Source: Sorex araneus
Taxonomy: Eukaryota; Chordata; Mammalia; Eulipotyphla; Soricidae
Assembly: GCF_027595985.1 (NCBI RefSeq)
Contig: NC_073303.1
Span: 25,906,565-25,970,564 of the forward strand
Direction: 5' to 3'
DNA: 64,000 nt
Within the stretch, counting starts at the first letter, position 1, and every line of letters starts with the position of its first letter. The position numbers and the translations under genes are program-made. This document shows positions 843-20,815 of this stretch, one piece after another. The notes under the pieces were generated by a model, which worked only from the letters and a program-made list of their open reading frames with translations, searched no databases and was not told the DNA's origin.

Positions 843-1492
843 CTTGGTCTGTTTCACCCCCTGCTGTGCTCAGGGCTCACTCCTGGCTCTGTGCTCGGGA
901 CTCACTACTGGCTCTGTACTCAGGGCTCACTCCTGGCTCCATGCTCAGTGCTCACTCCTGGCTCTGTGCTCAGGGCTCACTCCTGGCTCTGTGCTCGGGG
1001 CTCACTCCTGGCTCTGTGCTCGGGACTCACTCCTGGCTCCATGCTCAGTGCTCACTCCTGGCTCTGTGCTCAGGGCTCACTCCTGGCTCTGCGCTCAGGG
1101 GCTCACTCTTGGCTCCATGCTCAGTGCTCAGTCCTGGCCCTGTGCTCAAGGATCACTCCTAGCTCTGAGCTCAGGGTTCACCCCTGGCTCTGTACTCAGG
1201 GGCTCACTCTTGGTTCTGTACTCAGGAAATCACCCTTGGCTCTGTACTCAGGGCTCCCTCCTGGCTCCATGCTCAGTGCTCACTCCTGGCTCTGTGCTTC
1301 AGGGTTCACCCTTGGCTCTGTACTCAGGGGCTCACTCTTGGCTCTGTGCTCAAGAGTCACCCTTGGCTCTGTGCTCAGGGATGACTCGTGGGGCTCCGGG
1401 GAACAGATGTCGTGCTGGCATCAAACCCAGGGCCAGCCATGCACAAGGCAGGAGGGGCCTACCCACTGTACCATCTTCCCTGCCCCGCTGCT
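843..1492 (-). repeat. SINE with an internal expanded minisatellite (unit about 25 bp, about 20 copies)
   Basis: The outer ends (TGCTGTGCTCAGGGCTCAC at about 850 and CATCAAACCCAGG...ACTGTACCATC at about 1418-1475) are the two halves of one antisense SINE. The segment between them, normally one GGCTCACTCCTGGCTCTGTG unit, is repeated about 20 times (about 858-1382) with variants such as CCATGCTCAGT and TACTCAGGGG. Stop-free frames across it are a by-product of the repeat. Confidence 0.85.
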
Positions 1493-9029: not shown

Positions 9030-9724
9030 CAGGCGGAAACTTGAAACTTTTTATTAAATACTCATTCACCCGTTTGCCATCACCGTCCAGAGCAGGAAAA
9101 AAATTATCAAAACGGAATTAAAAAAAAAATGTAAACCCAAATCCCCAGTATGTACAAGGCCGCTCTCTGCCTCTCTGCCACAGAGAGGCGGTGGGGGGGG
9201 GGGATGCTGAGGAGGTGGGGAGCGGGGGGGCTGGGCACTTTCTCTGCAGCCGCAGACCCCTGAGGGATGCTGATTGCAACGGGGGAGGCCAGGCGTCGCT
9301 GCTGGCCTCCGGCAAGTGCGTATTGCTGAGAGGGGAGCTGGCTGCCCTCTCCCCGACGGGCAGTGACCAGCGCGAGTGGACGGCCAGTCCCTATGGAGCC
9401 CCGCTGCCACCTGAGCAGGGGAGGGGATGGTGGGCACAAGGGTGCTCCTGAGTGGGAGGGGCGTCGGCGCCTGCTGACTCCTGGGGGGCGGGGTCTGGGT
9501 GCAGGCTGGCATCCAGTCTGTTCTCCTGAGCGTCTGAGGATTGAGCACCCCTGGTTCCAGCTGTCAGCCCTCCGCCAGGGCAGGGCTGCCGTCCCCTGCT
9601 CTCCTGCTGCCCTCGGCCCTGGAGACGCGTGTGGCCACTTTCCAGAAGCTGGCCACGGGCTGGGCACCCTGTCTCCGACGCGGTGTGGTGCAGTGCGGTG
9701 CGATGAGGGACCCAGCGCTCGGGC
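9030..9724 (-). other. ZNF76: ZNF76 3' UTR
   Basis: Unique sequence runs from the stop codon to a poly(A) signal at 9050-9055. No SINE lies inside. A T-rich/A-rich stretch occurs at about 9090-9130. The end near 9030 is set by the signal plus about 20 nt. Confidence 0.75.
9050..9055 (-). terminator. ZNF76: ZNF76 poly(A) signal AATAAA
   Basis: The minus strand reads GTATTTAATAAAAAG about 670 nt after the ZNF76 stop codon. No other AATAAA occurs in between. Confidence 0.75.
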
Positions 9725-9829
9725 TCAGCAGCCACTCTCGGACGCGGCAGCCTCCACAGTGATGGCCCCGTGCCGCATGGCAGCCGTGGCCGCGCTGATG
9801 GCTTCCTCTAGGGTCTGCGGCTCCTCCAG
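9725..9829 (-). CDS. ZNF76: ZNF76 exon 14 (C-terminus and stop)
   Basis: 105 nt including the TGA at 9725-9727. It encodes LEEPQTLEEAISAATAAMRH and GAITVEAAASESGC, matching the known C-terminus. Acceptor CCCGCAG. Confidence 0.95.
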   Translation of the reverse strand: MEEPQTLEEAISAATAAMRHGAITVEAAASESGC

Positions 9830-10252: not shown

Positions 10253-10366
10253 CTGCACAGCGATGTGAGTCCCGTTGGCCGTGGCCAGCAGCGCCACCTG
10301 CTGATGGTGAAGGGACGTGACACCTGTGTCCTCAGCCACCACGGCCCCAGAGGTAATGATGGTGAC
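10253..10366 (-). CDS. ZNF76: ZNF76 exon 13
   Basis: 114 nt, 38 codons, phase 0 to 0. It encodes VTIITSGAVVAEDTGVTSLH and HQQVALLATANGTHIAVQ, part of the C-terminal region. Acceptor GTTCCAG, donor GTGGGT. Confidence 0.95.
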
Positions 10367-10866
10367 CTGGAACAGAGAAGAAATGATTCCACCCCACCCA
10401 GGGTCTCTCCGCGGGAGCAGGCTGGCGAGGTGAGGGCTGGACGGCGGTTGAGAAACTGTCCCTCCACGCCAGCCAAGGGATTCCCAAGCCGCGAGCTTGG
10501 TCGGGGAAGACCCTTTCCTTGGTGGGATCTTGCCACTTTTGAGGCTTGACCCCTGGGAAGGCTGCACCTGAACGCCACCCCCAACAGAAGAACAAGAAGA
10601 AGCCCCAGGGGCTGGAGCGATAGCACAGCAGGTAGGGTGTTTGCCTTGCACGCGGCCGACCCGGGTTCGATTCCCAGCATGCCTTGCACTCGGCCGACCC
10701 GGGTTCGATTCCCAGCATCCCATATGGTCCCCTGAGCACCGCCAGGGGTAATTCCTGAGTGCATGAGCCAGGAGTAACCCCTGTGCATTGCCGGGTGTGA
10801 CCCCAAAAGCAAAACCAAACCAAACCAAAACAAAACAAGAAGCCCTAAGCAAATGCCCGGTCATCT
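10367..10866 (-). other. ZNF76 intron 12
   Basis: 500 bp if exon 12 ends where expected. It is largely occupied by a SINE (10608-10830), whose tail ends about 35 nt from the defective exon 12 end. Confidence 0.65.
10608..10830 (+). mobile_element. SOR-type SINE with duplicated box B
   Basis: A 38 bp segment from GCCTTGCACGCGGCCGACCC to the CAGCAT after box B occurs twice in tandem (10643-10680, 10681-10718). It carries the GAGTGCATGAGCCAGGAG variant. An AAGAAGCCC repeat flanks it (about 10597 and 10837). It sits in ZNF76 intron 12. Confidence 0.9.
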
Positions 10867-10983
10867 GGGCTGTGTCTGGGTGCCACTGGCGCTGACCGTG
10901 GAGGCAGTGTGTGTGCCGGTGGCTGGGATGGTGAGGGTGGTGGCACTGCCCAGGGCCTGCTGGCCTTCTGGGGACGGGCTGAC
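10867..10983 (-). pseudogene. ZNF76: ZNF76 exon 12, shortened and without a canonical donor
   Basis: After the acceptor CCGCAGGCAG the minus strand reads VSPSPEGQQALGSATTLTIP, then ATGTHTASTVSASGTQTQP: 39 codons in phase 0. My recollection of human ZNF76 has 55 codons here. The missing residues form two in-frame blocks, 9 residues after GSA and 7 after LTIP. After the last expected codon (CAG CCC) the genome reads AGATGA, with no GT, and reading on meets TGA at once. A weak in-frame alternative donor (ACG followed by GTCAGC at 10896) would keep 29 codons. As neighbouring exons are both phase 0 here, skipping it preserves the frame. Human has a 515-residue isoform, which as I recall equals loss of this exon. 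The exon may be decaying, or the sequence may hold an error. Confidence 0.7.
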
Positions 10984-11711
10984 CTGCCTGCGGGAAGGAA
11001 AGCGAGGGGGCACCCCCCAGGCACACAGAGCAGCTCTGTCCCCACGTGCCCGCTGGAAGGACACCACACATCACCAGGATGAGGGGGTCGAGGGCACAGT
11101 GCTCAGGAGGCCCCAGATTGCAGTGAGTGGCCTCTGTCCACCCTGCCCTCTCCTGCGCTGTCCCCTGTGATTCAGGCTCTCCAACCAACCCTCTGGTCAG
11201 CACCAGAGAACAAGTGAAGTGAGGACAGGACAAGGGCCGGGGGCAGAAACGCAGCTGTCCACACCACCCGGGCTCTGGCCCCGATGCCGACTGGCCAGCC
11301 GTGGGGCACGGAGGATGGGGGGACCCAGGGAAACGGCGGCCGTGTCCTCGCAGCCGCCCTGAGCCCCCCTCCCCCCTGCCTGCTGGGAACAGGCCTCCCT
11401 GGGATCACTGGCATCTCAGCCTCAGCCCTGAAGTCCACCAGCTGAGGAGAAAACCTGCGCTGGGGCCCGGGGATGCACAGCAGGGAGGGCACTAGCCTTG
11501 CATGCGGCCAACCCAGGTTCAATCCCCGGCATCCCACATGGTCCCCTAAATACGGGCCAGATGTGGCGTAAAAACAAAAAAATAAAAATGAAACAGAAAA
11601 TAGAGAAACTGCACGTGTGGGGGCGTGGAGGGGCGGTCAGGACACTATCAGACCCCTGGGAGTCCTGGGAGGTGAGTGAGGGGCCCCCTCCGGCCGCCCC
11701 CTCCCGCGTAC
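10984..11711 (-). other. ZNF76 intron 11
   Basis: 728 bp of unique sequence containing one truncated SINE (11463-11580). Confidence 0.8.
11463..11580 (+). mobile_element. SOR-type SINE, 3' truncated
   Basis: Head and box B (GGTTCAATCCCCGG) are present. The body stops after GGTCCCCTAAATAC and the A-rich tail follows. Confidence 0.75.
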
Positions 11712-11878
11712 CTGCTGGGCACCGTCCTGAGTGATGAGAGCCACCTGCGGGGCGCCGTCCCCCTCGGTCACCATGGCCACCTGGGCTGGGGCCTCGTCGC
11801 CCTCCTCCTTCACCTCCGAGAGGTAGGCGATGCGGGGCTGCTTGGGCGGCGGGGGGCCCTCCTCCGCGGCAGAGGCGG
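11712..11878 (-). CDS. ZNF76: ZNF76 exon 11
   Basis: 167 nt ending in phase 0. It encodes [20 protein letters not shown], then [20 protein letters not shown] through ITQDGAQQ. The run of four prolines is one longer than I recall for human. Acceptor CCCGCAG, donor GTACGC. Confidence 0.93.
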
Positions 11879-20646: not shown

Positions 20647-20815
20647 CTTTGACAGCCTGCTGGACGTAGGCCGTCGTCCCGTCGCTGAGGGTCACCGTCT
20701 GCAGGCCCAGGCTGTCCATGGCCCGCCGTCGCCTGCGCACTCGGACATGAAGCTGGCTTCTGGCCAGCACCGGGAGCCACGGCCGAGGACAGGGGTGGCC
20801 TTCGGGGTCACAGAT
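20647..20815 (-). CDS. ZNF76: ZNF76 exon 2 (5' UTR end and start codon)
   Basis: The acceptor CTGTCTCCTCAG precedes 96 nt of 5' UTR (20720-20815). The ATG is at 20717-20719 with G at -3 and +4. Coding part 20647-20719 gives MDSLGLQTVTLSDGTTAYV followed by QQAVK. The donor is GTGAGT, phase 1. The UTR/acceptor boundary is my prediction; the coding part is certain. Confidence 0.92.

What the first reader, a model, noticed from the sequence alone, without database searches (positions are those of the whole stretch)
10837..10983. ZNF76 exon 12 has no GT donor and has lost 16 codons
The sequence shows an intact acceptor and 39 in-frame codons homologous to a 55-codon human exon (from memory). Where the donor should be, the minus strand reads CAGCCCAGATGACC, with no GT, and an in-frame TGA follows at once. 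The exons on both sides join in phase 0, so skipping is harmless to the frame. A young SINE has inserted in the intron, its tail ending about 35 nt from this point. Human ZNF76 has a shorter 515-residue isoform whose 55-residue difference equals this exon. I infer that the shrew may make only the skipped form (516 residues), or a 29-codon version from the weak donor ACG|GTCAGC.
Basis: partly seen in the sequence, partly recalled or inferred. Interest (0 to 1): 0.75.

Follow-up and report, generated by a model that had tools for sequence, protein, structure and literature searches.

The report
Shrew ZNF76 lost an optional exon
In this shrew the gene ZNF76 still carries the decayed remains of one optional protein-coding block, but the signal needed to splice it into the message is gone, so the animal most likely makes mainly or only the short version of a protein that other mammals make in two versions; this is a tidy but ordinary kind of evolutionary loss.

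Summary
ZNF76 is on the minus strand with 13 coding exons placed. Exon 12 keeps 39 of 55 codons, ends CCC|AGATGACC with no GT, and meets an in-frame TGA one codon on. None of 360 single-base edits restores a good in-phase donor. In the same genome the paralogue ZNF143 keeps the matching exon with a normal donor; Suncus and moles keep all 55 codons. New: P0006, a 516-residue protein from a 2,278-nt contig of unnamed source, joins exon 11 to exon 13 exactly as predicted and groups with this shrew rather than Suncus. Best reading: lineage-specific loss of a cassette exon, the short isoform now being the main or only product. Corrections: a competing acceptor AG lies 4 nt upstream; the SINE left target-site duplications and did not remove the donor; the 29-codon option matches an alternative junction annotated in Old World monkeys and guinea pig. 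No RNA of this species was searched, and skipping alone is common in mammals. A known kind of event; modest interest.

The parts
11712..11878 (-). ZNF76 exon 11, ends CAG|GTACGC in phase 0
   Evidence: model; donor score 8.06
10984..10987 (-). GCAG between two competing acceptor AGs of exon 12; use of the upstream AG adds 4 nt and shifts the frame
10978..10986 (-). CAG|GTCAGC at the acceptor junction, a possible recursive 5' splice site (score 7.07)
   Evidence: recalled matrix
10867..10983 (-). Remnant of ZNF76 exon 12, 39 of 55 codons
10891..10899 (-). Internal in-phase donor ACG|GTCAGC (29-codon form); same junction position as the 45-codon form annotated in Old World monkeys and guinea pig
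10858..10866 (-). Place of the missing donor: AGATGACCG directly after codon 39
10861..10863 (-). In-frame TGA met on read-through
10608..10836 (+). Abundant shrew SINE (tRNA-like by eye) with an internal 38-bp tandem duplication; 4 of 131 comparable positions off the family consensus
10597..10607 (+). Target-site duplication, 5' copy AAGAAGCCCCA
10837..10847 (+). Target-site duplication, 3' copy AAGAAGCCCTA
10253..10366 (-). ZNF76 exon 13, acceptor TTCCAG|GTCACC, phase 0
   Evidence: only this place matched in the genome search
9725..9829 (-). ZNF76 exon 14 with the stop codon
   Evidence: only this place matched in the genome search

Best explanation
Exon 12 of ZNF76, a frame-neutral optional exon in other mammals, has died on the lineage leading to this shrew after its split from Suncus. 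Shown: no GT donor, 16 codons lost in two in-frame gaps, excess amino-acid change, an open frame without the exon, and a skipped 516-residue protein from a contig of a shrew relative. Inferred: exon 11 is spliced straight to exon 13 in most or all transcripts here, giving the short isoform; leaky use of the internal donor ACG|GTCAGC may give a minor 29-codon form; read-through transcripts meet the TGA and are probably degraded. Because both gaps are multiples of three, the exon was perhaps still translated when they arose and the donor went later (inferred; 1 in 9 by chance).
For:: no GT at the exon end, against GT at the 11 other internal donors placed; 0 of 360 single-base edits around the exon end give an in-phase, stop-free donor scoring 6 or more there. 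ZNF143 in the same genome keeps a 54-codon homologous exon, GTCAAC...CAG|GTAACT, phase 0 at both ends, so the expected donor position is sound; 55-codon exon in Suncus P0021, Galemys P0007, Condylura P0074 and others; this shrew differs from consensus at 9 of 39 shared columns against 0-4 in 40 distinct sequences, five of the nine at columns invariant in all 40; changes seen here but not in Suncus, 8 of 39 columns in exon 12 against 8 of 124 in the rest of the C-terminal part (Fisher p 0.025), or 12 of 288 with the N-terminal part added (p 0.0009). P0006, 516 aa, 494 of 516 identical to the skipped model, no exon 12, from a contig of 2,278 nt while the gene here spans about 11 kb, so it is cDNA-like. 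P0006 groups with this model (90/86), shrews together (100/99).
Against: No RNA of this species was searched. P0006 alone does not prove exon loss: 23 of 151 database proteins skip exon 12 (17 mammalian, P0006 included), and P0155, an unnamed-source contig without the shrew signatures, also skips. The donor and species of P0006 are unseen, and an intronless retrocopy as its source is not strictly excluded. An in-phase internal donor remains. The tail after exon 12 also changes fast here (12 of 72 columns against 0-10; P0006 9), and exon 12 against tail, compared with the 40 pooled others, is not significant (p 0.069). The p values are not corrected for the three comparisons.
Confidence: 0.85

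Rival explanations
1. A shortened exon 12 of 29 codons is still included through the internal donor ACG|GTCAGC at 10897, giving a 545-residue protein in a fair share of transcripts.
For: The site is in phase 0 and is the only in-phase, stop-free GT donor found in the stretch scanned. The same junction position is annotated in 5 of 151 database proteins, THTVTM or THTVAM joined to exon 13: P0009, P0010, P0012, P0127 (Old World monkeys) and P0060 (guinea pig).
Against: Score 4.7 against 8.06-12.15 for the gene's donors (recalled matrix). The competing upstream AG would make a 91-nt exon, out of frame. The codons it would include show excess replacement, among them L3P and L8Q. P0006 lacks it.
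Confidence: 0.12
2. Exon 12 persists as a read-through or poison form: transcripts keep exon 12 and run into intron 12, stopping at the TGA, giving a truncated protein or being degraded.
For: TGA one codon past the old end. Exon 12 still has acceptor signals.
Against: No AATAAA or ATTAAA between exon 11 and exon 13 on this strand to make a terminal exon.
Confidence: 0.05
3. Assembly or base-calling error, or an individual variant: the species has a normal donor.
For: Only one assembly and no reads could be inspected.
Against: 0 of 360 single-base edits restore a donor. No homopolymer longer than three lies within the last 20 bases of the exon. Two gaps and excess replacements accompany the loss. 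Only one place in the genome search matched the exon itself.
Confidence: 0.03
4. The SINE insertion destroyed the donor.
For: It lies 19 bases (to its duplication) from the exon remnant and is a low-divergence copy (4 of 131).
Against: Target-site duplications flank it, so the insertion removed no bases at the donor. It may have weakened an already failing exon.
Confidence: 0.03

Closest known systems
Lineage-specific loss of a cassette exon (human-mouse-dog comparison, PMC2231371; abstract and passages seen)
   Same: A frame-preserving optional exon conserved in outgroups is lost in one lineage while the gene stays intact
   Different: Here the decaying body of the exon is still visible and a relative's skipped product can be seen
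[quoted passage not shown]
   Same: The predicted shrew product is the skipped isoform; 16 other mammalian database proteins skip the same exon
   Different: In other mammals the 55-codon form is annotated as well
ZNF143, paralogue, same genome
   Same: Homologous exon in the same phase
   Different: Exon intact, 54 codons, donor CAG|GTAACT
Annotated recursive-splice exons (PMC6224609; summary and passages seen)
   Same: Exon 11 + exon 12 would rebuild CAG|GTCAGC at the junction
   Different: No lariat or RNA evidence; ZNF76 has 0 occurrences in that paper's main text

Membership tests
Lineage-specific cassette-exon loss | Exon present in outgroups and close relatives | tested here: met
   Suncus P0021, Galemys P0007, Condylura P0074 keep 55 codons
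Lineage-specific cassette-exon loss | A required splice site is gone in the focal genome | tested here: met
Lineage-specific cassette-exon loss | Removal keeps the frame | tested here: met
   516-residue open model
Lineage-specific cassette-exon loss | Relaxed constraint on the remnant | tested here: met
   p 0.025 and 0.0009 by two choices of background; a third comparison p 0.069; uncorrected. A DNA-level test of synonymous change was not possible without orthologous DNA
Lineage-specific cassette-exon loss | Transcripts of the species lack the exon | not testable with these tools
   Only a relative's product, P0006, was found
Unitary pseudogene | Disabled reading frame of the whole gene | tested here: not met
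   The 12 other coding exons placed form one open frame; their 11 donors are GT
Non-canonical intron (GC-AG or U12 AT-AC) | GC or ATATCC-type donor at the exon end | tested here: not met
   AGATGACC after the exon; nothing resembling the U12 consensus (consensus recalled)
Recursive-splice exon | Rebuilt 5' splice site at the upstream junction, scoring like real donors | tested here: inconclusive
   CAG|GTCAGC scores 7.07, below the lowest of the gene's 11 donors, 8.06 (recalled matrix, not the score used in PMC6224609)
Recursive-splice exon | Two-step removal shown by lariats or partly spliced RNA | not testable with these tools
   no RNA data
SINE-caused donor loss | Insertion disrupts or deletes the donor | tested here: not met
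   target-site duplications present on both sides, donor side untouched

The most novel reading that the evidence does not exclude
Exon 12 of ZNF76 began with a built-in way out: joined to exon 11 it rebuilds CAG|GTCAGC, a recursive 5' splice site. In other mammals this would compete with the exon's own donor and produce the short isoform; in the shrew lineage the true donor was lost, and the remnant survives as a ratchet point from which exon 12 is removed in two steps, locking the gene in the short form shared with P0006's species.
Probability: 0.06. Interest if true: 0.5.

Novelty: new member of a known kind. Interest (0 to 1): 0.25.

Why it matters
If true, one lineage of shrews is a natural experiment in which a pair of isoforms of a transcription factor, annotated across mammals, has been fixed to the short form. 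It would show that the 55-residue segment is dispensable in at least one lineage. It is a small example of how optional exons decay; it opens no new mechanism by itself.

Tried and rejected
Retrocopy test: exon 11 end + exon 13 + exon 14 searched in the own genome matched only the gene's own exons 13 and 14 (2 matches), so no processed copy tells what the mRNA looked like. An exon-12-bearing shrew protein other than Suncus P0021 was sought with a 555-residue and a 188-residue query; none is recognisable among the rows listed, but the database is clustered at 90% identity, one search scored only the 7,973 candidates sharing most words and listed 120 of 3,608, and members hidden behind representatives cannot be seen. 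Literature: 89 papers hold ZNF76, 40 listed; a search for Sorex araneus with ZNF76 gave 0 papers; a search for five ZNF76 isoform, splice and exon terms gave one paper, whose 'ZNF76L' hits are ZNF76-low, not an isoform. The SF3B1-sensitive ZNF76 acceptor (PMC4743009, passages) has human coordinates that I could not place on an exon, so it was not used; the ZNF76 passages of PMC7749173 do not bear on the exon. Solved structures: the 60 rows shown match the zinc-finger part only. U12, GC-AG, assembly error and SINE damage were considered and set aside for the reasons given above.

The pattern parse failed on some rows and mis-sized others (P0018, whose exon is whole, and the 42-residue rows, which end at codon 45). 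re-sorted all 151 with loose patterns: 23 skip (21 by pattern; P0145 and P0147), 5 end at the internal junction, 123 hold exon 12. One search used only the 56 rows with a 55-codon exon 12 and a 72-residue tail, 40 of them distinct; the other rows were dropped. Several rows are isoforms or close relatives, so they are not independent. The 12 'lgn'-tagged rows were hand-picked as spanning the region; P0003 among them has other sources too.

Full report
What is there. The protein model groups with Suncus etruscus in a shrew clade with support 100/99, so 'shrew' is a result and 'Sorex' is an inference. ZNF76 runs on the minus strand from its start codon at 20719 to its stop at 9725. Thirteen coding exons were placed. 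The 11 internal donors other than exon 12's are GT and the acceptors of exons 3 to 14 end in AG; without exon 12 the frame is open for 516 residues.

The exon. Between exon 11 (ends 11712) and exon 13 (starts 10366) lies a stretch at 10983-10867 that reads VSPSPEGQQALGSATTLTIPATGTHTASTVSASGTQTQP. Database proteins show the full exon to be 55 codons, for example in Suncus, Galemys and Condylura. Aligned to the consensus of 40 distinct mammalian sequences, this shrew lacks 9 and 7 codons and differs at 9 of the 39 remaining columns; the 40 others differ at 0 to 4. Five of the nine sites are invariant in all 40.

The donor. The exon end reads ACACAGCCC|AGATGACCGG. Of 360 single-base changes, insertions and deletions around the old end, none makes an in-phase, stop-free donor there scoring 6 or more. 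An in-frame TGA stands one codon on. The paralogue ZNF143 in the same genome keeps the matching exon: 54 codons, phase 0 at both ends, acceptor TTGCAG|GTCAAC, donor CAG|GTAACT. The donor is therefore missing where homology says it should be.

The acceptor. It may be usable, but it reads CCCGCAGGCAG|GTC: an AG four bases upstream sits behind a richer pyrimidine tract (18 against 15 of 20). By the general preference for the first AG (established knowledge, not tested here), inclusion would often add four bases and break the frame.

What other mammals do. Of the 151 proteins listed by the first two searches, 123 hold exon 12, 23 skip it (17 mammalian, P0006 included) and 5 use a junction inside it, after THTVTM or THTVAM. 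That internal junction is at the position of the shrew's ACG|GTCAGC. The internal site scores 4.7 here.

Product in a relative. P0006 is a 516-residue protein from a source tagged 'lgn' (which I take to be assemblies of public reads; recalled), on a contig of 2,278 nt. It is identical to the skipped model at 494 of 516 residues and joins ...GAQQ to VTIITSG with no exon 12. It groups with this shrew against Suncus, 90/86. A contig of that size fits a spliced mRNA: here the gene spans about 11 kb, and the coding sequence plus the distance from the stop to an AATAAA at 9055 comes to about 2.2 kb. Its species is unknown, and skipping alone does not show that its donor is gone: of 12 hand-picked 'lgn'-tagged proteins spanning the region, P0006 and P0155 skip and 10 hold the exon, and P0155 lacks the shrew signatures.

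Constraint. Changes seen in this shrew but not in Suncus number 8 of 39 columns in exon 12, 8 of 124 in the rest of the C-terminal part, 4 of 164 in the N-terminal part and 0 of 204 in the zinc fingers; Suncus-only changes over the same 39 columns number 1. Fisher p is 0.025 against the C-terminal part and 0.0009 with the N-terminal part added. A cruder comparison with the tail alone gave p 0.069; this shrew's tail is itself fast, 12 of 72 against 0-10. The exon has relaxed in this lineage, with modest statistical weight.

The SINE. The repeat is a low-divergence member of an abundant family: 4 of 131 positions off a consensus of 49 similar aligned pieces; 43 pieces long enough to score range from 1.5 to 13.0% (they were picked for likeness to this copy). 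It lies on the + strand at 10608-10836 between duplications of the target, 10597-10607 and 10837-10847. It therefore landed in intron 12, 19 bases beyond the exon remnant, without deleting the donor.

Mechanism. The most likely course is: the exon was already optional; two in-frame deletions and replacements built up; the donor was lost by a change that cannot be named without orthologous DNA; exon 11 now splices to exon 13. Shown: anatomy, decay, open short frame, and the relative's product. Inferred: the order of events, and that the short form is the main or only form here.

A bolder reading. Exon 12 starts with GTCAGC behind a CAG. Joined to exon 11 this rebuilds CAG|GTCAGC, score 7.07, somewhat below the gene's own weakest donor (8.06). 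Recursive-splice exons of this build are known, and incomplete repression of them contributes to physiological alternative splicing (PMC6224609, summary and passages). This could explain why the exon is optional in mammals and how the remnant is removed here. There is no RNA evidence, and the amino acids at the exon start (VS) could conserve the motif by themselves.

Verdict. A real, well-supported, lineage-specific loss of an optional exon. Loss of alternative exons in single mammalian lineages is described (PMC2231371, abstract and passages), so this is a new member of a known kind. A search for Sorex araneus together with ZNF76 in the held library found no paper.

Noticed in passing
window 10642-10718: The SINE next to exon 12 carries a 38-bp tandem duplication of part of its tRNA-like region (2 copies, 97% matches).
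   Followed up: partly
window 864-1391: A 25-bp tandem array of about 21 copies whose unit resembles, by eye, part of the local SINE family.
   Followed up: no
window 7283 downwards, minus strand: A reading frame starting [32 protein letters not shown], which I recognise from memory as the start of DEF6, lies about 1.8 kb beyond the ZNF76 poly(A) signal at 9055 on the same strand.
   Followed up: no
window 20748, minus strand: An upstream ATG 29 bases before the ZNF76 start codon, out of frame, opens an 18-codon reading frame that overlaps the start.
   Followed up: no
P0009, P0010, P0012, P0127, P0060 (database proteins): Old World monkeys and guinea pig have an annotated ZNF76 form that ends exon 12 ten codons early, at an internal junction shared in position with the shrew's remaining GT.
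   Followed up: partly
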